DNA of 64,000 nucleotides from a virus. A program made the position numbers and the translations under genes. Positions 3,918-63,658 of the stretch are shown one piece after another (the stretch's first letter is position 1; each line of letters opens with the position of its first letter). The notes under the pieces are model-generated. The model had not been told where the DNA came from, did no database searches, and was given only the letters and a program-made list of their open reading frames with translations. The stretch spans positions 31,572 through 95,571 of IMG/VR virus record IMGVR_UViG_3300032288_004022. One strand, given 5' to 3'.

Positions 3918-4369
3918 TGTGGTATAGTCGCGTGGTCGCTGACCTCGGCAATATTCCAGATTTTATAGCACACTACGAGCGCGAGCTTGAGGACGCTAAA
4001 AAAGAATGTAAAATTAGCGGCTTAATTGAGCGCCATTTGAAAGAGTTGCCCGGCGCAACCGAGCAACGATTTTATCAGTTGCAGGAAATTGAAGCAGTGT
4101 TGAATTACCTCAATATTCAATTGCGTAAAATTCGCCGCCGCCATTTTCAAAAATATCTTGAAGCATATGCACGAGCTCTTACTAGTCGTGATGCTGAAAA
4201 ATATGTTGACGGTGAAGACGAAGTTGTTGACTTTGAAACAATCATCAACGAAGTGGCTCTGTTGCGCAATCGTTGGTTGGGCATTATGAAAGGCCTTGAA
4301 GCCAAGCAGTGGCAAATGGGGCACATTGTTCGACTGCGCACAGCCGGCATGGAAGATATTACAGTTTAA
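3917..4369 (+). CDS. uvsY: UvsY-like recombination mediator
   Basis: A protein of 150 residues, largely helical and rich in charged residues. The C-terminal segment (GIMKGLEAKQWQMGHIVRLRTAG) has the same pattern as the end of T4 UvsY, where a K-x-x-x-F-x-I-K-H-I-x-x-M-R motif is found, and the size is close (T4 UvsY 137). UvsY loads UvsX on gp32-covered ssDNA. The position directly after gp32 and uvsX supports the call. Overall similarity is low and the assignment rests on pattern, length and context. Confidence 0.6.
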   Translation: MWYSRVVADLGNIPDFIAHYERELEDAKKECKISGLIERHLKELPGATEQRFYQLQEIEAVLNYLNIQLRKIRRRHFQKYLEAYARALTSRDAEKYVDGEDEVVDFETIINEVALLRNRWLGIMKGLEAKQWQMGHIVRLRTAGMEDITV

Positions 4370-4376
4370 GGAAAAT

Positions 4377-5477
4377 ATGAGTTATTTGTTTACAAGTGAG
4401 TCGGTGAGTGAAGGACATCCCGACAAAGTGGCTGATGCCATCAGTGATGCTGTTCTTGATATCATCATGGAAAAGCAAGATCCTGCACTGCGTTGTGCAT
4501 GCGAAACCTTGGTTACCACCAATCGTGTTGTGATTGCTGGTGAATACAAAGGTGTTTTGCATGACCAAGAAGTTGAAAGTGCTGTGCGCAGAACCATTAA
4601 AAATATTGGCTATCAACAATCAGGATTTGATTGGAGCACAGTAGAGATAACCAATTTATTGCACGGACAATCAGCAGACATTGCCTTGGGCACAGACACA
4701 TTTGGTGCCGGCGATCAGGGCTTGATGTTTGGTTATGCCTGCGATGAAACTGAAAATCACATGCCCAGTGCAATTTACTGGAGTCATAGAATTGTAGAGA
4801 CTCTGACTCGAGTGCGGAAAAGCATGGCGCTGCCTTGGCTGGGGCCCGATGCCAAAAGCCAAGTAACATTTGAGTATGATGACAAAAATCGCCCAGTTCG
4901 AATTGCCAAAGTGGTTTGTAGCACACAGCATCACGAAGACACTGACATTGAAAGGGTTAGACAGTCAGTTGAATCTGTGATTCGCGGCATATTGCCTGAA
5001 AAATATGTTGATAATCGCACTGAGTTTTTTATCAATCCCACTGGTCGCTTTGTTATTGGCGGCCCTGATGGCGATACTGGGTTGACTGGTCGCAAGATCA
5101 TTGTTGACACCTATGGTGGATACAGCCCCCACGGCGGTGGCGCATTCTCGGGCAAAGATCCCACCAAGGTGGACAGATCGGCTGCTTATATGATGCGTTA
5201 TATCGCCAAGAATATTGTGGCTTCGGGTCAAGCGCCCCGGGCGACCTGTCAAATCAGTTACGCCATTGGTATGAAGGATCCCATGAGTTTCTATGTTGAA
5301 ACACCAGATCAAGACTTGAGTCGCCGACTCACGTTGAAAATTCAAGACCTGATTGACTTGACACCCATGGGCATTATTCGACATTTTGATCTATTCCGAC
5401 CCATCTACAGTTCTACAACTAACTATGGACATTTTGGTAAAGCAGATTTGCCCTGGGAAAAGATAGACCTGTTCTGA
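4377..5477 (+). CDS. metK: S-adenosylmethionine synthetase
   Basis: A protein of 366 residues from ATG 4377, chosen because AAGGAAA precedes it and MSYLFTSESVSEGHPDK matches the family start; an in-frame ATG at 4296 lies inside the previous gene. The signatures are GAGDQG at residues 110-115 and GGGAFSGKD at 253-261. It makes S-adenosylmethionine from methionine and ATP. It is slightly shorter than bacterial MetK (about 384) but appears complete. SAM could feed the several methyltransferase-like proteins and the radical-SAM protein in this window, or restore pools drained during infection. Confidence 0.95.
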   Translation: MSYLFTSESVSEGHPDKVADAISDAVLDIIMEKQDPALRCACETLVTTNRVVIAGEYKGVLHDQEVESAVRRTIKNIGYQQSGFDWSTVEITNLLHGQSADIALGTDTFGAGDQGLMFGYACDETENHMPSAIYWSHRIVETLTRVRKSMALPWLGPDAKSQVTFEYDDKNRPVRIAKVVCSTQHHEDTDIERVRQSVESVIRGILPEKYVDNRTEFFINPTGRFVIGGPDGDTGLTGRKIIVDTYGGYSPHGGGAFSGKDPTKVDRSAAYMMRYIAKNIVASGQAPRATCQISYAIGMKDPMSFYVETPDQDLSRRLTLKIQDLIDLTPMGIIRHFDLFRPIYSSTTNYGHFGKADLPWEKIDLF

Positions 5478-42699: not shown

Positions 42700-45021
42700 A
42701 TGAAACAAATTACAGTGGAAAAACGCAACGGAACTCGCGAGCCGTTGGCGTTGGAAAAGTGGCAAGCGCAGATCGCCAAGGTTTGTTCGGGCATCGCGGA
42801 CGTCAGTCAGAGCATGATTGAAATCAAGGCCCAACTGCATTTTTATGATGGAATTACCACAAAAGAAATTGATGGAATAACCTTGCGTGCCATAGTGGAC
42901 CTAATTGATGTAGAGTCAAATCCCGATGTAGGACACACCAACTATCAGTATGTGGCTGGCAAACAGCGTCTCAGTATGCTGCGCAAGGATGTCTACGGCA
43001 CTTATGATCCCCCTCATTTGTATGAAATTGTCAAAAGAAACGTAAAAGTTGGACTCTATACGCCAGAGCTTCTTGAATGGTATTCAGAAGATGATTGGAA
43101 CCGCATGAATGACATGATCGATCATGCCAAGGACGAGCAGTATTCTTATGCAGCGGTAGAACAGTTGATTGAAAAGTATCTTGTTCGCAATCGTAGCACC
43201 AAGGAAATTTACGAAACTCCGCAAGTACGATACATGATTGCGGCAGCCACAGTGTTTCACAAAGAAGAGCCCAACTCGGCTCGTATGCGCTATATCAAGG
43301 AATATTACAATGCGGCTTCTGACGGCTTATTTACTCTCGCTACTCCTGTTCTTGCTGGGCTTGGCACTCCCACTAAGCAGTTCAGTAGTTGTGTGCTCAT
43401 ACGCAGTGATGATGATCTTGACTCCATTTTTGCTAGCGGCGAAATGATGGCCAAGTATGCCAGCAAACGTGCTGGCATTGGTTTAGAGATTGGTCGCCTG
43501 CGTCCCTTGGGCTCGCCCATTCGTGGCGGCGAAATCATGCACACTGGCATGATTCCTTTTTTAAAGAAATGGTTTGGTGATCTACGATCATGTTCACAAG
43601 GCGGTATTCGTAATGCAAGTGCCACTGTGTTTTATCCCATATGGCATCATCAGTTCGATGATCTCATTGTTCTCAAGAACAATCAAGGCACCGAGGAGAC
43701 TCGAGTCCGACACATGGACTATGGAGTGGTACTATCTGCTTTCTTTTGGCGTAGATTTAAACGCAAAGAGCATATCACTTTCTTTGACCCCAATGAAGTG
43801 CCGGATCTTTACGAGGCATTCTACAGAAACACTGAGCTCTTTGAAAAACTTTATGTGCAGTATGAAGCACGATCTGATCTTCGCAAGAAAACTATGTCTG
43901 CGGAAGAAGTATTCAAGTCGGGCATACTCAAGGAGCGAACAGACACTGGTCGTATCTATCTAGTGTTCATTGACAATGTGATGAATCAAGGTCCCTTTGA
44001 TTCTGAGTACCATACAATCTATCAAAGTAATCTCTGCTGTGAAATTCTCTTACCCACAAAACCATTTAAAAGATTGGATGATGCTGATGGGCGAATCGCG
44101 CTCTGTACGCTTGGAAGTATTAACTGGGGTGCATTCCGGAATCCCGAAGACATGCGCAGAGCTTGTAGAATTCTGCAGAGATCCTTGTGTAATATCCTTG
44201 ACTACCAAGACTTCCTCTCAATCCAAAGCCAGTTATCGAATGACGAAATTCAGCCGCTTGGTATCGGCATTACTAACCTTGCTTACTGGCATGCCAAGCG
44301 CGGACTGCAATACGGTGACAAAGACGCTCTGGCCGAGGTTAAGTCGTGGATGGAGCACCAGGCCTATTACCTCACCGAGGCCACAGTCGAACTTGCCAAA
44401 GAGCGAGGCCCTTGCAAAGATTCGGACCGCACCTGGTATGGTCGTGGTGTCTTTCCTTGGGAACGACGTGCCACCGGGGTCAACGAACTCGCGGACTTTT
44501 CGCCTGAACTAGATTGGGAACCATTGCGTAAGGAGATGAAAGAACATGGTGTAAGAAATGCTACTCTTATGGCTATTGCTCCAGTTGAGTCTAGTAGTGT
44601 TGTTATTAATAGTACCAATGGTATTGAAATGCCAATGAGCTTGATCTCTGTGAAAGAAAGCAAAGCAGGAAGTCTCACACAGGTTGTTCCTGAGTATCAC
44701 AAACTCAAGAACCGGTATCAAATGATGTGGGCGCAGAAAGACTGTGACGGATATTTGAAAACTGCGGCTGTGTTGGCAGCTTACGTTGATCAAAGCATTT
44801 CGACAAACACATTCTACAACCCAGCACACTTTGCAGATCGCAAGGTTCCAACCACCCTGATTGCAAAAAATCTAATGCAAGCACACTACTGGGGATTGAA
44901 AACATTTTATTATAGTCTAATCAACAAACAAGGCGCCAAGGCCCGCGACGAAGAACTTATCGATTTGCCACACAGCACTGAAATTCTTGATGAAGAAGAC
45001 TGCGAAGCCTGTAAACTTTAA
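42700..45021 (+). CDS. nrdA: Ribonucleotide reductase class Ia, large subunit
   Basis: A protein of 773 residues. The N-terminal ATP-cone (KRNGTREPLALEKWQAQI) gives allosteric control. Active-site motifs are FSSCVL for the first redox Cys, SNLCCEILLP with the Asn, Cys and Glu of catalysis, and the C-terminal CEACKL with the C-x-x-C that passes electrons from glutaredoxin. It reduces ribonucleoside diphosphates with NrdB. The partner gene is separated from it by aceA and dadA, which is unusual. Confidence 0.96.
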   Translation: MKQITVEKRNGTREPLALEKWQAQIAKVCSGIADVSQSMIEIKAQLHFYDGITTKEIDGITLRAIVDLIDVESNPDVGHTNYQYVAGKQRLSMLRKDVYGTYDPPHLYEIVKRNVKVGLYTPELLEWYSEDDWNRMNDMIDHAKDEQYSYAAVEQLIEKYLVRNRSTKEIYETPQVRYMIAAATVFHKEEPNSARMRYIKEYYNAASDGLFTLATPVLAGLGTPTKQFSSCVLIRSDDDLDSIFASGEMMAKYASKRAGIGLEIGRLRPLGSPIRGGEIMHTGMIPFLKKWFGDLRSCSQGGIRNASATVFYPIWHHQFDDLIVLKNNQGTEETRVRHMDYGVVLSAFFWRRFKRKEHITFFDPNEVPDLYEAFYRNTELFEKLYVQYEARSDLRKKTMSAEEVFKSGILKERTDTGRIYLVFIDNVMNQGPFDSEYHTIYQSNLCCEILLPTKPFKRLDDADGRIALCTLGSINWGAFRNPEDMRRACRILQRSLCNILDYQDFLSIQSQLSNDEIQPLGIGITNLAYWHAKRGLQYGDKDALAEVKSWMEHQAYYLTEATVELAKERGPCKDSDRTWYGRGVFPWERRATGVNELADFSPELDWEPLRKEMKEHGVRNATLMAIAPVESSSVVINSTNGIEMPMSLISVKESKAGSLTQVVPEYHKLKNRYQMMWAQKDCDGYLKTAAVLAAYVDQSISTNTFYNPAHFADRKVPTTLIAKNLMQAHYWGLKTFYYSLINKQGAKARDEELIDLPHSTEILDEEDCEACKL

Positions 45022-45030
45022 CGGAACAAC

Positions 45031-46236
45031 ATGAAAAAACGTAATTACACACCAGAAACAGTTTGTCGTCTTCAAGGCTCAGTGCAAGTTGATCACACCT
45101 TGGCCCGCCTGGGCGCCAAGAAACTTCGTGAACTCTTGGCCACTGAGCCATATATCAACACCCTGGGAGCCTACAATGGTCAACAGGCAGTGCAACACGC
45201 CAAGGCCGGACTGAAAGCAATTTATCTATCAGGCTGGCAAGTGGCCGCAGCCAACAACACAGCACTACAAACCTACCCCGATCAAAGCTTGTATCCTGTG
45301 AACTCAGTGCCACAGGTTGTGCGTGGCATCAACAATGCTTTCCGTCGAGCAGATCAGATTGAATACAGCGAAGGTGAGGTAACCACTGACTACTTCTTGC
45401 CCATTGTGGCCGATGCTGAAGCTGGCTTTGGTGGTGCACTCAACGCATATGAGCTCATGATGGCCATGATCGAGGCTGGCGCTGCTGGTGTGCACTTTGA
45501 AGATCAACTGAGTTCAGAAAAGAAGTGCGGCCACCTGGGCGGCAAGGTGCTGATTCCCACCAGCCAGGCCATTCGCAACCTCAATGCCGCACGTTTGGCT
45601 GCCGACGTAGCCGGTGTAGACACAGTGATCATGGCTCGCACCGATGCAGAAGCTGCCACACTGATCACATCGGACCATGATCCACTTGACAAGGAGTTTG
45701 TAATCGATGAACGCACAGAAGAAGGATTCTACAAATTTAACAACGGTATCGATGCTTGTATTGCTAGGGGTCTTGCTTACGCCCCTTATGCTGATCTCTT
45801 ATGGTTCGAAACTAGCACCCCCGATATCCAACAGGCCAAACGATTTGCAGACGCAATCCATGCTGAATTCCCAGATCAAATGTTGGCCTATAACTGCTCA
45901 CCCAGTTTCAACTGGCGCAAATTTTTGTCTGAAGCAGAATGCGAATCCTTCCAGCGCGAACTAGGTGAGCTGGGATTCCGGTTTCAGTTCATTACACTTG
46001 CGGGGTTCCATTCAGTGAACCTTGCTACCTTTGAACTTGCAGAAGCATATCGGGCACGTGGCATGGCTGGTTACAGCGAGATGCAACAACGTGAGTTTGC
46101 TGCACAACAACGTGGCTTTACCACCGTGAAACATCAACGCGAAGTTGGCGTCAGCTACTTTGACTTGATCTCGGAAGCCGTGGGCGCCACATCTACTGTG
46201 GCCAATAAAACAAGTACAGAACACGATCAATTCTAA
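45031..46236 (+). CDS. aceA: Isocitrate lyase
   Basis: A protein of 401 residues. The family signature [10 protein letters not shown] is at 164-173 with catalytic Cys166. [10 protein letters not shown] (127-136), GVHFEDQ and YNCSPSFNW also match. It cleaves isocitrate to glyoxylate and succinate, the first step of the glyoxylate shunt. It is about 30 residues shorter than E. coli AceA (434) at the N-terminus and ends, but appears complete in the catalytic core. It lies between nrdA and nrdB, 9 bases after nrdA, with its stop overlapping the dadA start. No malate synthase is visible in the window. Composition is like the neighbours. Confidence 0.95.
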
Positions 46237-47411
46237 TGAAGACCGTTGCTGTTATTGGTGCAGGCATCACCGGACTTGCCACTGCCTATTACTTGGCAAA
46301 AGAAGGATATCAAGTATCTGTATTTGAAGCAGAACGTTATCCAGCCATGAAGACCAGCTTTGCCAATGGGGGACAAATCTCTGTCAGCAACAGTGAAGTT
46401 TGGACCAGCTGGAGCAACGTCAAGAAGGGCCTCCGGTGGATGTTTACAAAGGATGCACCTTTGCTTATTCCTTTGCGCTGGGATTGGGCACAGTGGAAGT
46501 GGATTGTTAAATTTTTGTTCTATACCATTCGAGGTGATTACAACAAAAACACCGCATGGACCATCCGCACTGGCATCGAGAGTCGCAAACTGTACGACGA
46601 GATTCGACAGGAAGAAAACATTGACTTTGATTACACCAAGTGTGGCATCCTGCATTTCTATAAAGATCAAGAATATTGGGACAATGCAAAAGCAGTTAAA
46701 AAAATTTACAATGACAACGGTTGTAAATGGGATTTGTTGGTCAGTGCTGCTGATGTCAAGGCTGTAGATCCGTCTCTAGCTGGAATTACAAATGTCATTG
46801 GCGGCGCCTGGACGCCAAGTGATGCAACCGGTGATATCCATGCATTCTGTTACGAGCTTGCAGAAATCTTAAAGACCAAGTATGGGGTAGCATTTCATTA
46901 CAACACAAAGATCAACGATCTTCGCGCTCTGTGTTATGATGCCACAGTTGTTTGCAATGGCGTTGGCAGCACAGCGTTGGCAAAAAGCATTGGCGATGAT
47001 TTACCAGTATATCCAGTTAAAGGATACTCGATCACCATCAACGACGTTGATCCTGCACATTTGCCCCGGGTAAGTTTGTTGGATGATCAATCCAAAATTG
47101 TTACTGCAAGCCTAGGTAATCGTTTCCGTGTGGCAGGCACAGCTGAACTGGCCGGCGAGAATTATGATATCAGGCGTGATCGTATACAACCATTATTGGA
47201 TTGGGTACACACAAACTTTCCCAATATCAACACACACAGTTACACACAATGGGCATGTTTGCGTCCAATGACACCAAACATGATGCCAATAATCAAGCAA
47301 AGTAAATCCAATCCCAAAGTTTTTTACCACACTGGACATGGCCATTTAGGTTGGACATTGAGCCCAGCTACTGCTAAAATAGCAGTGAATCTTGTCAAGG
47401 AAACAATATGA
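46236..47411 (+). CDS. dadA: D-amino-acid dehydrogenase (DadA-like flavoprotein)
   Basis: A protein of 391 residues. The FAD-binding motif GAGITG is at 8-13, with an acidic residue ending strand 2 (VFEAERYP). NGGQISVSNSEVW is typical of DadA. GHGHLGWTLSPATAKIA near the end is the second flavin-contacting motif. DadA oxidises D-amino acids, mainly D-alanine, to keto acids and passes electrons to the respiratory chain at the membrane. The gene overlaps aceA by one base and nrdB by four. It could use D-Ala released from the cell wall. Another D-amino acid oxidase-like activity is possible. Confidence 0.88.
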   Translation: MKTVAVIGAGITGLATAYYLAKEGYQVSVFEAERYPAMKTSFANGGQISVSNSEVWTSWSNVKKGLRWMFTKDAPLLIPLRWDWAQWKWIVKFLFYTIRGDYNKNTAWTIRTGIESRKLYDEIRQEENIDFDYTKCGILHFYKDQEYWDNAKAVKKIYNDNGCKWDLLVSAADVKAVDPSLAGITNVIGGAWTPSDATGDIHAFCYELAEILKTKYGVAFHYNTKINDLRALCYDATVVCNGVGSTALAKSIGDDLPVYPVKGYSITINDVDPAHLPRVSLLDDQSKIVTASLGNRFRVAGTAELAGENYDIRRDRIQPLLDWVHTNFPNINTHSYTQWACLRPMTPNMMPIIKQSKSNPKVFYHTGHGHLGWTLSPATAKIAVNLVKETI

Positions 47412-56667: not shown

Positions 56668-57106
56668 AAAACGTGGACGCCGGTATCATCCTGTATATGA
56701 GTACGATAGTGATCTTTTGGACAGTTTCCCTAAAGGTAGTCACCTTGTCATCGTATACCCCGGGGGTACATCCCGTAGGTTTAACATTCAACCTAACCAT
56801 GCCGCGCTGATTGCAGCCGGACGGGTGGCCGAAGATGCTATGTGTACAGCAATTCGCGAAGCCAGCGAAATGCGCCCGCAACGCACACCTATCACAGAAG
56901 GTCAGCAACGAGCTTGGAAAAAGTTGGCCCGAGAGTTTGGTAACGACCTGGCCACTTTAAATATAGGTAGCGCCCGGGACATTGCAGATGCAGGCCTGGC
57001 CGCATTGCAGGCGGAAGCAGATAAATTAATGCAACACGAGAGTGTGAGAAACGCATACGAACAATTCCTGTTGGTATGTGAATTAACCAAGAAGGAGAAA
57101 GAATGA
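56648..57106 (+). CDS. Hypothetical protein
   Basis: A protein of 152 residues from ATG 56648, which lies inside the end of the previous gene; a TTG two codons earlier is possible. A beta-type start (KIFYEKRGRRYHPVYEYD) and YPGGTSRRFNIQPNH are followed by a long helical part with Glu/Ala. The family is not recognised. It overlaps the membrane-protein gene by 4 bases. Confidence 0.65.
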   Translation: MKKIFYEKRGRRYHPVYEYDSDLLDSFPKGSHLVIVYPGGTSRRFNIQPNHAALIAAGRVAEDAMCTAIREASEMRPQRTPITEGQQRAWKKLAREFGNDLATLNIGSARDIADAGLAALQAEADKLMQHESVRNAYEQFLLVCELTKKEKE

Positions 57107-57795
57107 TGTACGCATCAACTATTGACAATTATAGAGACGCCGCCGGCGTAAACCAAGCCATGGGCCGTGTGTATGGACATATGGCGCTGGCTGTGCTGAC
57201 CAGCATGCTGGTGTCCATGTTTGTGGGCATGAGTCCAGAACTGGTTGAGTTTTTCTTTACCGGCATCATGAAGTGGGTAGTGATCTTTGCACCCTTGGTG
57301 GCAGTATTTGGTGTCACCATGGTGCTGGGCAACAACCCCAGCAAAGGTGTTGCACAACTGTGCCTACATGGTTTTGCGGCACTCATGGGCTTGAGCTTTG
57401 CAATGATCTTTGTGATCTTTACCATGGGATCAATCTTTACTGCGTTCATGGGTGCGGCTGTGTTGTTTGGCACCATGAGTGCGTATGGATACTTTACCAA
57501 ACAAAGTCTTGACTCAGTGGGCAAGTATGCCTTTGTTGCTTTGATCGCCATCTGCATTGCCAGTATCATTAATATCTTTATTGGCAGCACCGTGATGCAG
57601 ATGGTGATCTCCGCACTGGCAATCATTATCTTTCTAGCACTTACTGCATATGACACACAGCAAATACGCGAGATGGTGTCAAATGGCGATGCCACTGAGG
57701 CCGACGAAGTGTCTGGAGCACTGACACTGTATCTGGACTTTATTAACCTGTTCATTAATCTACTCCAGCTGTTTGGACTTAAAAAGGACGACTAA
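57103..57795 (+). CDS. BAX inhibitor-1 family membrane protein (YccA/YbhL-like)
   Basis: A protein of 230 residues with about seven hydrophobic segments spread over residues 25-225. The pattern of the family is clear: an N-terminal GRVYGHMALAVL, central GLSFAMIFVIFT, YGYFTKQSLDSVGKYAFVAL, and a final ALTAYDTQQIREM with acidic residues of the channel end. In bacteria YccA modulates the FtsH protease; other members are Ca2+ leak channels. A phage copy could protect from FtsH or lower membrane damage. AAGGAG precedes the ATG. Confidence 0.9.
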   Translation: MMYASTIDNYRDAAGVNQAMGRVYGHMALAVLTSMLVSMFVGMSPELVEFFFTGIMKWVVIFAPLVAVFGVTMVLGNNPSKGVAQLCLHGFAALMGLSFAMIFVIFTMGSIFTAFMGAAVLFGTMSAYGYFTKQSLDSVGKYAFVALIAICIASIINIFIGSTVMQMVISALAIIIFLALTAYDTQQIREMVSNGDATEADEVSGALTLYLDFINLFINLLQLFGLKKDD

Positions 57796-59091: not shown

Positions 59092-59120
59092 TTGACATCG
59101 CGCCGCGATCCATGTATAAT
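59092..59120 (+). promoter_or_regulatory. Full-consensus sigma70 promoter
   Basis: TTGACA (59092-59097), a 17-base spacer, TATAAT (59115-59120). Both hexamers match the bacterial consensus exactly, the only such promoter seen in the window. It points into a structured non-coding region rather than directly at a gene. Confidence 0.92.
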
Positions 59121-59126
59121 TACTGT

Positions 59127-59310
59127 GTGCATGGACAAAGAGATTGGGCTGTTCAATGGCCAGGTAGGGTGATTCGATAACCTAGGCCTACCAGGCACCG
59201 TGGCATGTGAACAGAAGTCCCGTAGGTTGCGACAAAGACCTCGGTCTGGCAACAGACCAAAACCCAGGCTGGAACCCCGGGGGTATGCCAAGAGGAAAAA
59301 ATCTAGTAAG
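59127..59310 (+). ncRNA. Candidate structured RNA (or structured leader)
   Basis: About 185 bases between the consensus promoter and the ATG at 59320 have several nested stems. An outer helix CTGTTCA / TGAACAG (59149-59155 with 59208-59214), possibly extended by GGG / CCC, encloses a 10-position helix (59159-59168 with 59187-59196, one A-A mismatch). A separate GGTCTG-GCAA-CAGACC hairpin with a GNRA tetraloop is at 59233-59248. GC-rich CCCAGG/CCGGGGG segments follow at 59252-59283. The frame that passes through it codes an implausible Arg/Lys/Pro-rich stretch. I recognise no known RNA family. It may be a stable small RNA, a regulatory 5' leader or a ribozyme-like element. Confidence 0.55.
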
Positions 59311-59319
59311 GTTGTGTAT

Positions 59320-59637
59320 ATGACTGTTAACATCGAGGCCTCTACGTCGAGTATGCCGACATCAATTGACTCGCTTAAAGAAACGCCTTTGCCCATGCAC
59401 AAATTATTTTTTGAACTGTCTACCATCAGTCAATGGTATGCTATCATGCGAGAAGCACGAGCACAGTTTGGCAAAAATTGGCGCAGTCAAAGTCATGTCA
59501 AACGCAGACTTGACCGTATACTGTATAAAGATAACCTGGCCACAGAGCGTGTTTGGTTTGAGGTGCCAGATCCCAAATTTGGTACCTGGGTCGCCATTAA
59601 ACATGCTGTTAGACAGGTAGCGGCCACTAATAAATAA
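59320..59637 (+). CDS. Hypothetical protein downstream of the structured region
   Basis: A protein of 105 residues from ATG 59320, chosen over an upstream GTG at 59200 because the extra 40 residues would be translated structured RNA. Helical, basic second half (SHVKRRLDRILYKDNLATERV). Ribosome binding site weak (TAAGG). Not recognised. If the leader is a riboregulator, this is its target. Confidence 0.65.
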   Translation: MTVNIEASTSSMPTSIDSLKETPLPMHKLFFELSTISQWYAIMREARAQFGKNWRSQSHVKRRLDRILYKDNLATERVWFEVPDPKFGTWVAIKHAVRQVAATNK

Positions 59638-59643
59638 ATTTCT

Positions 59644-61092
59644 ATGATATTTGGTTTTGCTATTTTGGCCACTGCTCTTTTATTGAGCGCGGTGGCTGCC
59701 TATTACTCTGTGGCTGGCCTGGTTGCTATATTTTCTGCGGCAACTATTCCTGTGATCATCATGGGTGGCTCATTGGAACTGGGCAAGATTGCAGCCACTG
59801 TGTGGTTGCACAACAATTGGCGCCGTGCAGGGTGGGCCTTCAAAGTGTATCTTGTGCCAGCAGTGGCATTTTTAATGCTGTTGACCAGCATGGGTATATT
59901 TGGATACCTATCAAAAGCACACAGTGATCAAAGCTTAGTAAGTGGAGATGTTGTTAGCAAAATTGCAATCTATGATGAAAAGATCAAGACCGAAAAAGAA
60001 AACATTGAAGCAAACCGTAAGGCACTTAAACAGATGGATGAAGGAGTGGACTCGGTACTGGGCCGCTCAACAGATGAAAAAGGTGCCGACAAAGCAGTGG
60101 CTCTGCGTCGCGCCCAGCAGAAAGAACGTGCTAGACTTCAAGCTGAAATATCACAGTCGCAAAAGTCTATTGCGGAACTTAACGATGCCCGTGCGCCTAT
60201 TGCCGCCGAAGTACGCAAAGTTGAAGCCGAAGTTGGTCCCATAAAATACATTGCGGCCCTGCTGTACGGGGACAACCCTGATGACAATCTACTAGAACGT
60301 GCAGTGCGTTGGATGATCATAATGATTGTGTTGGTGTTTGATCCCCTGGCCTTGACATTGATTCTGGCCGCCAACAAACAGTTTGAGTGGGCACGTCAAG
60401 GCACCGGTGGATTTATTCACGATGAGTCTGTGCCCAAGTACGAGCCCGATGATGGCCCACTAACCAAACAACAACTTGAAACCCTGCGCGAGGTCGCAAA
60501 GACAGAGCCTCCAACGCAGGAACCACCCCCACATAGTTCTGACACACATCCTTATTTGACACAGGGTTTTCAATATCCGCCGGGTTGGATGTTTCATCCA
60601 CCCATGGTGGCCAAATCTGACGAAGTGACACCATGGGAAGACCATGAAGAAATAGGATCTGAAAACCAGGAACTCAAAGCAGCCATCAAGCAATGGAAGG
60701 CTGACAACCCTGATGACACAATAAAAAATCAACGATCCAAATTTATACGAGGTGAAATTAACGAATTGCCTTGGATGCGTCTGGTAGCTGACAATGCCAA
60801 ACCAGAAAACCGCACTGGTTTTGGCACAAGTTTTCCAGAAACCGCCAACAAAGGCGATTCGTTTGTGCGAGTAGACATTGTGCCCAATGTTGTGTACAAA
60901 TTCAATGGGACAAACTGGATTGCGGTTGACAAAAACCTCAGCGACAGTTACACTTATGATTCAGCGTATATCGAACACCTGGTGAACAAAATAAGCACAG
61001 GCGAATATGATCCCGAATTGTTGAGCAACAGCGAACGTCAACAGTTAGAAAATTATCTACAAACCAACAAGGCAAACAATGAAATCAAATGA
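59644..61092 (+). CDS. Membrane protein with coiled coil, possible inner-membrane phage protein
   Basis: A protein of 482 residues. Hydrophobic segments near residues 1-22, 25-45 and 70-95, then a long coiled coil (about 110-205, rich in Lys, Glu and Ala), another membrane segment (about 218-245, WMIIMIVLVFDPLALTLILAA), and a soluble C-terminal half with FNGTNWIAVDKN. This arrangement is known from many phages of aquatic bacteria, where the function is not established. AATAAATA lies 8 bases before the start. Confidence 0.75.
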   Translation: MIFGFAILATALLLSAVAAYYSVAGLVAIFSAATIPVIIMGGSLELGKIAATVWLHNNWRRAGWAFKVYLVPAVAFLMLLTSMGIFGYLSKAHSDQSLVSGDVVSKIAIYDEKIKTEKENIEANRKALKQMDEGVDSVLGRSTDEKGADKAVALRRAQQKERARLQAEISQSQKSIAELNDARAPIAAEVRKVEAEVGPIKYIAALLYGDNPDDNLLERAVRWMIIMIVLVFDPLALTLILAANKQFEWARQGTGGFIHDESVPKYEPDDGPLTKQQLETLREVAKTEPPTQEPPPHSSDTHPYLTQGFQYPPGWMFHPPMVAKSDEVTPWEDHEEIGSENQELKAAIKQWKADNPDDTIKNQRSKFIRGEINELPWMRLVADNAKPENRTGFGTSFPETANKGDSFVRVDIVPNVVYKFNGTNWIAVDKNLSDSYTYDSAYIEHLVNKISTGEYDPELLSNSERQQLENYLQTNKANNEIK

Positions 61093-62293
61093 CACTATTG
61101 ACACATGCAGTTTTTGTGGCAAACACAAAGATGCGGTTGCTAAACTCATTGTTGGCGAAAGTGTTGCAATTTGTAATGAGTGTGTGGAACTTTGCGAAAC
61201 ACTGCTTGCAGATGAAAGCATAGTCAAACCAACAGACTCAGTTGAACTTGATCCACAAGCCATCAAAGAACATCTTGACCAGTATGTGGTCGGGCAAGAT
61301 CGAGCCAAACAGGTGTTGAGTGTGGCAGTGGTAAATCACTACAAACGTATTGCCAATCCTGATCCCAATGTAGAAATTGAAAAGTGTAACATTTTGATGT
61401 TTGGGCCCACTGGATCAGGAAAAACATTGTTGGCTCGCAGTGTGGCACGTTATCTTGATGTACCATTTGTGATTGCCGACGCCACCAGTTTGACCGAAGC
61501 AGGCTATGTGGGCGACGATGTTGAAAGTTTGATTTCGCGACTGTTTGCGGCCGCCAATGGTGACGTGGCCAAGACTCAACGTGGCATTGTGTTCATTGAC
61601 GAAATTGACAAAATTAGTCGTAGAAGTGAGAGTGCCAGTATCACACGCGACGTCTCAGGCGAAGGTGTGCAGCAGGCCCTGCTGAAATTGGTGGAGGGCA
61701 CCAAGTGCAGAGTCACCCCCACTGGTAATCGCAAGCACCCATCGGGCGAAATGATCGAAATTGACACCACAAACATTTTGTTCATTGCTGGTGGTGCATT
61801 TGTGGGACTGGAAGCTGTGGTCAAAAATCGAGTGCGCGGCACCAGCATTGGATTTGGAGCCAAGGTAAATTCTGATGTCAACACCAATTTGGATCAAGTT
61901 ACACCAGATGACTTGATCAAGTTTGGAATGATCCCGGAGTTTATTGGACGCTTCCCTGGCTGGGTAGCACTCAAGGAACTCAGCAAAGAAGATCTCATTC
62001 GTATTTTATTGGATGTCAAGCACAGTTACATCCAGCAGTATTCGTGGTTGTTTGGACAAGATCGAGTTGAACTAGAATTCAGTCCCGAAGCCTTGGAATT
62101 GATTGCTGATCGCACTATTTTAAACAAAACTGGCGCTAGGGGCCTGCACAGCGAACTAGAGCGGGTGCTGCTACCACACATGTTCTATTTGGCACAGTAT
62201 CGTCGGCAAGGAATTGACCGGGTGATCATTGATGCCGACCAGGTAAATACTCCTATAGAACTCAAGGAAGCAAATGCAAAAACTCAGGGGTAG
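61079..62293 (+). CDS. clpX: ClpX-like AAA+ unfoldase
   Basis: A protein of 404 residues. The N-terminal zinc domain has Cys10, Cys13, Cys32 and Cys35. Walker A GPTGSGKT is at 109-116, Walker B IVFIDEID at 170-177, the pore loop GYVG at 142-145, the RKH loop at 218-220, and the ClpP-binding IGF tripeptide at 257-259. With the IGF loop kept it can probably dock on host ClpP and redirect proteolysis. It overlaps the coiled-coil membrane gene by 14 bases. E. coli ClpX has 424 residues. Confidence 0.96.
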   Translation: MKSNDTIDTCSFCGKHKDAVAKLIVGESVAICNECVELCETLLADESIVKPTDSVELDPQAIKEHLDQYVVGQDRAKQVLSVAVVNHYKRIANPDPNVEIEKCNILMFGPTGSGKTLLARSVARYLDVPFVIADATSLTEAGYVGDDVESLISRLFAAANGDVAKTQRGIVFIDEIDKISRRSESASITRDVSGEGVQQALLKLVEGTKCRVTPTGNRKHPSGEMIEIDTTNILFIAGGAFVGLEAVVKNRVRGTSIGFGAKVNSDVNTNLDQVTPDDLIKFGMIPEFIGRFPGWVALKELSKEDLIRILLDVKHSYIQQYSWLFGQDRVELEFSPEALELIADRTILNKTGARGLHSELERVLLPHMFYLAQYRRQGIDRVIIDADQVNTPIELKEANAKTQG

Positions 62294-62498
62294 ATCAGTA
62301 CTGGTGCAAGACGGGCAAGTAGAAAAAGCCCTGCGCAAGTTCAAAAAGAAAATTCAAGATTCTGGAATTTTGAATGATGTTCGTGATCATGAGTTTTATG
62401 TCAAGCCCACCACTCGCCGCAAACTCAAGGCCAGTGCCGCTCGAAATCGCTGGCGTAAAAAACTAGCAGATCAACAGTTGCCCAAAAAACTCTACTGA
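62274..62498 (+). CDS. rpsU: Ribosomal protein bS21-like
   Basis: A protein of 74 residues, very basic. EKALRKFKKKIQDSGILNDVRDHEFYVKP (split here at IQDSG) and RRKLKASAARNRWRKK follow the bS21 pattern: an aLR-x-FK helix, a GI-L turn, then a K-P-(4)-RK-x-K helix. bS21 sits near the 3' end of 16S rRNA and helps initiation. Phage copies may replace the host protein and shift translation toward phage mRNA. It overlaps clpX by 20 bases. Confidence 0.88.
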   Translation: MQKLRGRSVLVQDGQVEKALRKFKKKIQDSGILNDVRDHEFYVKPTTRRKLKASAARNRWRKKLADQQLPKKLY

Positions 62499-62761
62499 TG
62501 TACATAGAATTCCAACTGCCCACGGGTGCAGGGGGAATGACTGCACAATACACAAACTCAGTACTCAACCGTAATCTTCATGCATGGAGTGATCGTTACG
62601 GCATTCCTTACAACAAGAAAATACACAAATGGACTGTGAGAGTCACGTTTGACAACGAAGAAAACTACAGTTTTTTCGCTCTGACCTGGAACCCCACAAG
62701 TGAAAATGTGTTGAGCTATCTTACCAATTATCGTTTGATAGAACCCATGAATCGTGTATAA
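62498..62761 (+). CDS. Small conserved protein
   Basis: A protein of 87 residues that shares its first base with the last base of the bS21 stop. A beta-alpha-beta pattern is visible (YIEFQLPTG, then AHRNL-like helix, then HKWTVRVTFDNEENYSFFALTW). Not assigned to a family, though it resembles short proteins common in T4-like phages of aquatic bacteria. A ribosome-related role is possible from position only. Confidence 0.65.
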   Translation: MYIEFQLPTGAGGMTAQYTNSVLNRNLHAWSDRYGIPYNKKIHKWTVRVTFDNEENYSFFALTWNPTSENVLSYLTNYRLIEPMNRV

Positions 62762-62767
62762 TAAATA
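62760..62767 (+). promoter_or_regulatory. Late promoter-like box (AATAAATA)
   Basis: AATAAATA in the 68-base gap upstream of the Hsp20 gene. It overlaps the end of the previous gene. A second possible reading is a chance AT-rich stop region. Confidence 0.5.
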
Positions 62768-62829
62768 ACTGTGTAGTGCCCATGGTGGGGCTACATTACA
62801 AGTCATCTTGCTTATAAAGGAGAAAACAA

Positions 62830-63288
62830 ATGACAAAAACTCTCACTCTTCGTAGTTTCGACATTCCCGCACTCACCAAATTTGGTATCGGTTTTGATAA
62901 CATGTTTGATGAACTCATGCGTGTGAGTGCTCAACAATCCAGCACAAACTATCCACCTTACGACATTGTACAAGTCAACGACGATGAGTACATGATCAGT
63001 GTAGCTGTGGCCGGATTTGGGCACGACGATCTCACAGTGACCAAGGACAAAAAGTTCTTGATCATTGAAGGCAAGCACAGCCGTGAAACTGTGGAGAATG
63101 AAGATAGCACTGCAAAATACTTGCACAAAGGTATTAGTGAAAGAAGTTTTCGCAGAGAATTCCAACTTGCAGACCATGTGGAAATCAGCAATGCTCACCT
63201 TGAGCTAGGCATTCTAAGCGTACATCTCAAGCGAGAAGTGCCCGAGGAAGCCAAGCCTAAAACTATTGCTATCACTTACGCTTCCTAA
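62830..63288 (+). CDS. Small heat-shock protein (Hsp20/IbpA-like)
   Basis: A protein of 152 residues with an N-terminal arm (1-35), an alpha-crystallin domain (about 38-130: PPYDIVQVNDDEYMISVAVAG, split, to LELGILSVHLKRE) with the conserved G-x-L-x-V motif (GILSV), and a short C-terminal extension. It holds unfolding proteins in soluble form. AAAGGAG precedes the ATG. Hsp20 genes are frequent in T4-like phages of aquatic bacteria, where they may aid capsid assembly. Confidence 0.93.
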   Translation: MTKTLTLRSFDIPALTKFGIGFDNMFDELMRVSAQQSSTNYPPYDIVQVNDDEYMISVAVAGFGHDDLTVTKDKKFLIIEGKHSRETVENEDSTAKYLHKGISERSFRREFQLADHVEISNAHLELGILSVHLKREVPEEAKPKTIAITYAS

Positions 63289-63304
63289 TATAATAGCGTA
63301 AATA

Positions 63305-63329
63305 CAGTAGCGGCACGGTGCCGCTACTG
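63305..63329 (+). promoter_or_regulatory. Strong hairpin between hsp20 and clpS
   Basis: An 11-bp perfect inverted repeat (CAGTAGCGGCA / TGCCGCTACTG, loop CGG) lies 17 bases after the Hsp20 stop and ends 17 bases before the clpS ATG. No T-run follows, so it is not a standard terminator. It may stabilise or separate the two mRNAs, or control clpS translation. Confidence 0.6.
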
Positions 63330-63346
63330 AACAACAAGGAACTGAA

Positions 63347-63658
63347 ATGGCACAGAGCGATACAAGAACACGAATCAAGCCTGCTGAAGACTTAAAAGAA
63401 CCACCAATGTACCGTGTTGTATATCTCAATGATAATCAAACAACCTACGAATTTGTGGTGGAAACACTGATGGAATATTTTGATTACAACGTAGAAACTG
63501 CTGAGACCATCACAAAAGACATCCATGAAGAAGGATCAGCTTGTGTGGCAGTGTTGCCTTACGAAATTGCCGAACAAAAAGGTGTTGAGGTAACCATGTT
63601 GGCACGAGCTCAAAACTACCCACTGCAGGTCAGAGTTGAGCCCGAAAGCGTAATTTAA
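63347..63658 (+). CDS. clpS: ClpS-like adaptor protein
   Basis: A protein of 103 residues close to bacterial ClpS (106): a flexible N-terminus, then PPMYRVVYLNDNQTTYEFVV with the substrate-binding Asn-Asp pair, HEEGSACVAVLPYEIAEQK with the His of the N-degron pocket, and LQVRVEPE. ClpS delivers N-end-rule substrates to ClpAP. Together with the phage ClpX it suggests active redirection of host proteolysis. It ends sharing TTAA with the convergent gene. Confidence 0.93.
   Translation: MAQSDTRTRIKPAEDLKEPPMYRVVYLNDNQTTYEFVVETLMEYFDYNVETAETITKDIHEEGSACVAVLPYEIAEQKGVEVTMLARAQNYPLQVRVEPESVI

What the first reader, a model, noticed from the sequence alone, without database searches (positions are those of the whole stretch)
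59092..59319. Consensus promoter driving a structured, non-coding region
The only exact TTGACA-17-TATAAT promoter in the window transcribes about 185 bases with nested stems, one GNRA tetraloop hairpin and GC-rich segments, unlike the flanking coding DNA. It does not match tRNA, tmRNA, 6S, SRP or RNase P patterns that I know. It may be a new phage small RNA or a regulatory leader controlling the 105-residue protein and the membrane-protein/clpX/bS21 genes downstream.
Basis: partly seen in the sequence, partly recalled or inferred. Interest (0 to 1): 0.72.

Follow-up and report, generated by a model that had tools for sequence, protein, structure and literature searches.

The report
Phage RNA fold spanning gene start
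In a large group of uncultivated phages, one strong promoter makes a messenger RNA whose first 275 bases fold into an elaborate, previously uncatalogued shape that includes the start of its own gene, so the protein code and the RNA shape have evolved together, probably to control when that gene is translated.

Summary
The promoter is real: TTGACA-17-TATAAT at 59092-59120 is the only exact match in the window (0.01 expected) and is exact in 47 of 61 distinct relatives. The structured RNA is real but larger than reported: 59127 to about 59400, not 59319. It runs through the Shine-Dalgarno sequence, the start codon (59320) and about 27 codons of the 105-residue gene. In 48 relatives a fully nested fold pairs in 91.7% of cells (at most 46% when slid), with compensatory changes in 46 of 71 pairs. 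A diverged set of 13 shows the same fold at 94.2%. The closing helix joins the RNA's 5' end to codons 23-27; compensating changes there alter the amino acid. Synonymous variation is suppressed in codons 1-28 (alignment numbering). The RNA is in no Rfam family, was found once per phage contig, and in all 97 untruncated loci lies directly upstream of this one gene. The gene's protein is basic, has a ferredoxin-like model and matches no known family. Best reading: a new family of cis-acting mRNA start domain that gates translation, most likely through binding of the gene's own product. Fold and location are shown; the regulator is inferred.

The parts
59092..59120 (+). Sigma-70 type promoter TTGACA-17-TATAAT; exact in 47 of 61 distinct relatives, one mismatch in 9 more; -10 box ends 6 or 8 nt before the conserved GCAUG in 60 of 61
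59127..59400 (+). Structured RNA domain, about 275 nt, from the expected transcription start to codon 27 of the ORF
59127..59140 (+). P1 5' strand (RNA 5' end), pairs with 59387-59400
   Evidence: 7 of 14 pairs with compensatory changes; in the diverged set
59146..59221 (+). P2 arm (P2a 59146-48:59219-21; P2b 59151-55:59208-12; P2c 59156-59:59198-201; P2d 59163-68:59187-92)
59229..59232 (+). P3 5' strand GCGA, pairs with UCGC at 59371-59374 (codons 18-19); 100% paired in 48 and in 13 sequences
   Evidence: (third-highest covariation in the matrix)
59233..59242 (+). P4 5' strand, pairs with 59292-59306 just upstream of the Shine-Dalgarno sequence
59243..59258 (+). P5 hairpin with GNRA loop (GCAA in the window), strong covariation
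59263..59281 (+). P6 hairpin, outer pairs supported, inner pairs uncertain
59283..59288 (+). Nearly invariant unpaired GUAUGC
59310..59325 (+). P7: Shine-Dalgarno GG[U/A] (59310-59312) paired with codon 2 [A/U]CU (59323-59325), start codon in the loop
   Evidence: A-U 33, U-A 13, G-U 2 of 48; homologous P7
59320..59637 (+). ORF1, 105 aa, basic (pI 8.9-10.5 in 24 homologues), no Pfam or PDB family; start codon and first 27 codons lie inside the RNA fold
59326..59370 (+). P8 (59326-30:59366-70, codons 3-4 with 16-17) enclosing P9 (59336-39:59355-58 and 59343-45:59351-53, codons 6-9 with 11-13)
59375..59386 (+). J3/1 UUAAANNAACGC, conserved across both sequence groups, inside codons 19-23
59387..59400 (+). 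P1 3' strand = codons 23-27; amino-acid changes here follow the RNA 5' strand
59644..61092 (+). ORF2, predicted membrane protein of 482 aa that follows ORF1 after 2-6 nt in most relatives (likely translational coupling)

Best explanation
This is a new family of cis-acting structured mRNA. A strong host-type promoter starts transcription at the base where helix P1 begins. The first 275 or so bases fold into a nested domain: a three-way junction P1/P2/P3, a four-way junction P3/P4/P7/P8, and arms P5, P6 and P9. The 5' end pairs with codons 23-27 of the gene, so the Shine-Dalgarno sequence and start codon are held inside the closed domain (in P7 in this group, in P9 in the diverged group). The closed fold most likely hinders ribosome loading, and loading or elongation opens it, so fold and translation exclude each other and the gene is gated. 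The most likely signal is the gene's own small basic protein binding the conserved junctions (autogenous control), with the membrane protein behind it controlled along with it. Shown: promoter, fold, overlap with coding sequence, one-gene linkage. Inferred: repression, direction of the switch, autogenous ligand.
For: Fold: 91.7% of 3316 cells paired, 46 of 71 pairs with compensatory changes, 422 double-changed cells against 138.5 in shuffles (0/500), slid controls 30-46%. Diverged set: 94.2% paired, 17 of 38 pairs compensatory. A covariation matrix computed without any long-range helix assumed put P2a, P1 and P3 in its first three places. G-U cells outnumber A-C cells 310 to 70, so the + strand is the folded one. 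Synonymous differences average 0.22 in codons 2-28 and 0.50 in the rest (p 8e-7). SD and AUG lie within P7 or P9. One copy in each of the 14 phage contigs with a hit. ORF1 is directly downstream in 97 of 97 untruncated viral loci. Relatives without the RNA keep ORF1, several with a -10 box about 6 nt before the ATG. All 24 homologues are basic.
Against: No expression or binding data. Single-sequence folding of the window RNA recovers P1, P2a, P2b and P5 (probability 0.8-1) but not P3, P4, P8 or P9 (about 0), and the covariation fold scores -65.8 against -88.2 kcal/mol for the minimum; it may need a partner, tertiary contacts or co-transcriptional folding. P7 in this group is three pairs, of which one varies on both sides. 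The ORF1 model has no significant structural match, so RNA binding is only suggested by charge and layout. A very strong promoter and a closed fold are also what a trans-acting RNA would show.
Confidence: 0.58

Rival explanations
1. A metabolite- or ion-sensing riboswitch: the conserved junction strands (GAGAU, AUAGGUU, UAAAUC, CUUAAANNAACG) form a ligand pocket, and P7/P9 are the expression platform.
For: Large fold with nearly invariant unpaired positions at junctions and a ribosome-binding site in a helix.
Against: Found before one gene family only, of unknown and not evidently metabolic function; no Rfam riboswitch match even at E 10.
Confidence: 0.15
2. A functional RNA acting in trans or as an RNP with ORF1 protein, processed out of the transcript near codon 27; the gene start overlaps it by evolution.
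For: 5' and 3' ends pair like a stand-alone RNA, the promoter is exact consensus in most relatives, the core is rich in conserved unpaired bases.
Against: No terminator-like site or separate 3' end seen; the reading frame and start codon are kept through the overlap, with indels of 3 nt; never found without ORF1, whereas ORF1 is found without it.
Confidence: 0.17
3. A kinetic translation timer: no ligand; nascent RNA is translated until the 3' strand of P1 is made and the domain closes, giving a burst of protein from each transcript.
For: The last helix strand lies about 260 nt from the 5' end inside the coding sequence.
Against: Does not explain the strong conservation of junction bases.
Confidence: 0.08
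4. A conserved self-processing RNA (ribozyme) or a remnant of one.
For: Size and complexity; unassigned conserved bases.
Against: No Rfam ribozyme match; the 5' end is at the expected transcription start, leaving no upstream product.
Confidence: 0.02

Closest known systems
T4 gene 32 and gene 43 autogenous leaders (PMC3014915)
   Same: Phage mRNA leader structure upstream of one gene that controls translation of that gene through its own product (for the present case, proposed).
   Different: gp32 uses a small pseudoknot 67 nt upstream and gp43 a short hairpin; here the domain is about 275 nt, nested, and includes the start codon and 27 codons. Binding by ORF1 protein is untested.
E. coli rpsO (uS15) and alpha-operon (uS4) mRNA operators (PMC10931766)
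   Same: A fold that contains the Shine-Dalgarno sequence and initiation codon and controls initiation.
   Different: Those are pseudoknots bound by ribosomal proteins; this one is nested, closes on codons 23-27 and belongs to an unknown gene.
manA and wcaG candidate cis-regulatory RNAs of cyanophages (PMC2864571)
   Same: Structured leaders found in phages and metagenomes by comparative analysis.
   Different: No Rfam match here, and those lie before metabolic genes of several kinds.
GOLLD and ROOL RNAs (PMC12286853)
   Same: Ornate phage RNAs of unknown function.
   Different: GOLLD often exceeds 800 nt; both often lie near tRNA islands. No tRNA is in this window and there is no Rfam match to them.

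Membership tests
Any Rfam 15 family (tRNA, tmRNA, 6S, SRP, RNase P, riboswitches, ribozymes) | Covariance-model match above gathering score, or even at E 10 | tested here: not met
   no match
Autogenous translational operator (T4 gp32 / rpsO type) | RNA structure at the 5' end of the mRNA of one particular gene | tested here: met
   97 of 97 untruncated viral loci have ORF1 directly downstream
Autogenous translational operator (T4 gp32 / rpsO type) | Structure overlaps or adjoins the ribosome-binding site | tested here: met
   SD and AUG in P7 or P9
Autogenous translational operator (T4 gp32 / rpsO type) | The gene product binds the RNA and represses | not testable with these tools
   ORF1 is basic with a ferredoxin-like model and no significant fold match
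Riboswitch | Conserved fold with conserved unpaired core plus an expression platform | tested here: met
Riboswitch | Specific small-molecule ligand | not testable with these tools
   none
Stand-alone small RNA | Own terminator or 3' end before the next gene | tested here: not met
   no + strand terminator-like site between promoter and ORF1
Stand-alone small RNA | Occurs apart from a fixed neighbouring gene | tested here: not met
Translated upstream reading frame (GTG 59200) | Frame kept open in relatives | tested here: not met
   stop in 41 of 48

The most novel reading that the evidence does not exclude
A new class of large RNA sensor whose recognition domain is built partly from coding sequence: the closing helix, one strand of the three-way junction and much of the four-way junction are made by codons 1-27, so each passing ribosome dismantles the sensor and some encoded amino acids are chosen by base pairing.
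Probability: 0.3. Interest if true: 0.85.

Novelty: new variant of a known kind. Interest (0 to 1): 0.72.

Why it matters
It adds an uncatalogued RNA family found on about a hundred phage contigs (up to 364 kb) and an unusually clear natural case of dual coding, where compensatory base changes force amino-acid changes. Because the fold and its mutants are now defined base by base, the question what large phages use elaborate mRNA folds for becomes directly testable with reporter fusions.

Tried and rejected
Rfam at gathering score and at E 10: nothing. blastn and tblastn against cultured phages: nothing. First model had P1 as GCAU with UAUGC at 59284-59288 plus a pseudoknot; dropped because in the diverged set that pairing does not covary, whereas the 5' end with codons 23-27 does; the 'pseudoknot' then becomes the nested helix P4. 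A conserved upstream ORF from the 5' AUG: frames differ between relatives (read). Coding by the GTG frame: rejected. Minus strand: the G-U/A-C asymmetry favours a + strand fold. RNA in bacterial genomes: 7 pattern hits, best model E 0.1, taken as chance; ORF1 in 200 genomes of one phylum: none (no positive control there). ORF1 identity: no Pfam family, only weak PHROG hits to families of unknown function, no PDB sequence match, no significant fold match. A resemblance of GGGGAGUA and CUUAAA to 16S rRNA was recalled from memory; no Rfam rRNA match, so not used. A tree of ORF1 needs about four gains or losses of the RNA, but most forks are unresolved.

Full report
What was checked. The promoter TTGACA-17-TATAAT lies at 59092-59120, is the only exact match in 64 kb, and 0.01 are expected by chance. 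The region behind it has no Rfam, tRNA or tmRNA match and no relative among cultured phage records. Its folding energy is unremarkable against shuffles (z -0.92), so the observation needed relatives.

Relatives. The 105-residue ORF at 59320-59637 has 64 relatives in IMG/VR by a plain search and 204 by a profile search, of which the best 80 were kept; a profile of the diverged members brought in further ones. They lie on contigs of up to 364 kb. In 61 distinct upstream stretches the promoter is exact in 47 and one mismatch off in 9, and its -10 box ends 6 or 8 bases before the conserved GCAUG in 60. Transcription should therefore start where the RNA fold starts.

First model. An alignment of 51 leaders up to the start codon gave 90.8% paired cells and compensatory changes in 25 of 41 pairs, slid controls 31-43%. 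A covariance model built from it finds exactly one copy in 14 of 16 phage contigs; the two without a hit, L051 and L056, carry diverged members. An RNA-only DNA pattern found 99 viral stretches. Of the loci, all 97 that are not cut off at a contig end have the ORF behind the RNA. The same pattern in 84,980 bacterial and archaeal genomes gave 7 stretches, none supported by the model.

The RNA runs into the gene. Synonymous differences between relatives are near zero at alignment codons 2, 7-9, 19, 20, 22, 25, 26 and 28 and average 0.22 in codons 2-28 against 0.50 in the rest (alignment codon 28 is codon 27 of the window gene, because of one inserted codon in some relatives). The reason became clear from the sequences: the first 14 bases of the RNA pair with codons 23-27. 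Relatives with 5' GGCGGG have codon UCG instead of UUG; those with 5' AUCGGGG have CCC CCG GUC; those with 5' UCUGGGG have CCC CCA GGC; L330 has 5' GCAUCACC and GGUGAUGC in the gene. The amino acid changes with the RNA partner.

Final model. On an alignment that includes these codons (48 sequences), a covariation matrix with no long-range helix assumed ranked P2a first, P1 second and P3 third, with P4, P8, P7 and P9 also among the top paired columns. The resulting nested structure pairs in 91.7% of cells; 46 of 71 pairs have compensatory changes; 422 cells are changed on both sides against 138.5 in shuffles (0 of 500); sliding the partners by one to three columns drops pairing to 30-46%. P3 and P7 are paired in every sequence and P8 in 99.2% of cells. 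One clade has changed codon 12 from AUG to AUC together with codon 7 from GCC to GGC, which keeps P9. G-U cells outnumber A-C cells 310 to 70, so the + strand is what folds. The sequences are related and some helices were chosen by eye on the same data, so the shuffle counts are not probabilities; the diverged set is the better control. There, 13 sequences with a different start codon position and longer P5 and P6 arms pair in 94.2% of cells, including P3 as GUGG:CCAC, GAGG:CCUC and GCGG:CCGC and P7 as GCAG:CUGU or GCAUU:AAUGU.

Anatomy. P1 encloses the whole domain. P1, P2 and P3 meet in a three-way junction with conserved strands GAGAU, AUAGGUU and CUUAAANNAACG. P3, P4, P7 and P8 meet in a four-way junction with about three unpaired bases, the AAA or UAA before the Shine-Dalgarno GG. 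P4 carries P5 (GNRA hairpin in the window) and P6. In this group the Shine-Dalgarno GG[U/A] pairs with codon 2 and the AUG is in the loop of P7. In the diverged group GGAG and AUG lie in P9. In both, the ribosome-binding site is inside the closed domain.

Relatives without the RNA. L061, L263, L267, L270 and L316 keep the protein but have a -10 box directly before a shortened ORF, which looks leaderless; L052 and L065 have other DNA there. None has a significant model match. The N-terminal extension of about 20-25 residues is present where the RNA is (and partly in L052), and the first 17 residues of the AlphaFold model have low confidence, as expected if that part is constrained by RNA more than by protein structure.

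Mechanism. The promoter, fold, coding overlap and one-gene linkage are shown. That the closed fold represses translation is inferred from the placement of the ribosome-binding site. That ORF1 protein is the regulator is inferred from exclusive linkage and from its basic charge (pI 8.9-10.5) with a ferredoxin-like order of strands and helices; fold searches gave nothing significant. A riboswitch, an RNP or processed RNA, and a purely kinetic timer remain possible.

Main weakness. Minimum-energy folding of the window RNA recovers P1, P2a, P2b and P5 but not P3, P4, P8 or P9; with the covariation fold enforced the energy is -65.8 against -88.2 kcal/mol. The native fold may depend on a partner, on tertiary contacts or on folding during transcription. 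The alternative could itself be the other state of a switch, but that is speculation.

Known relatives in kind. T4 gp32 and gp43 autogenous leaders (PMC3014915) and the rpsO and alpha-operon operators (PMC10931766) work in the way proposed here, but have other folds (a small pseudoknot, a hairpin, and two pseudoknots). manA and wcaG RNAs (PMC2864571) and GOLLD and ROOL (PMC12286853) are other phage RNAs; no Rfam model of any of them matches here. I know of no described RNA domain that closes on codons 23-27 of its own gene; that statement rests on the searches of the held library and on my own knowledge.

Noticed in passing
window 59644-63658: Downstream run of a membrane protein, ClpX with zinc finger and an IGFG motif, bS21, Hsp20 and ClpS: a phage-encoded proteolysis and translation set behind this promoter.
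   Followed up: partly
L061, L263, L267, L270, L316 (upstream of the ORF): Relatives lacking the RNA have a -10-like box about 6 nt before the ATG, which suggests a leaderless mRNA for the same gene.
   Followed up: partly
window 59629-59637: The last codons of ORF1 (AAU AAA UAA) are also frozen at synonymous sites in relatives, and ORF2 starts 2-6 nt later in most; a possible reinitiation signal.
   Followed up: no
window 4296-5474 and 42700-47408: Metabolic genes in a phage: S-adenosylmethionine synthetase, ribonucleotide reductase, an isocitrate lyase/PEP mutase family protein and an FAD-dependent oxidoreductase.
   Followed up: no
L056, L064, L256, L272, L273 (just upstream of the RNA promoter): A GC-rich hairpin followed by a T run ends just before the -10 box, as if upstream transcription is cut off before the RNA starts.
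   Followed up: no
window 57103-57795: Bax inhibitor-1 family membrane protein encoded by the phage.
   Followed up: no
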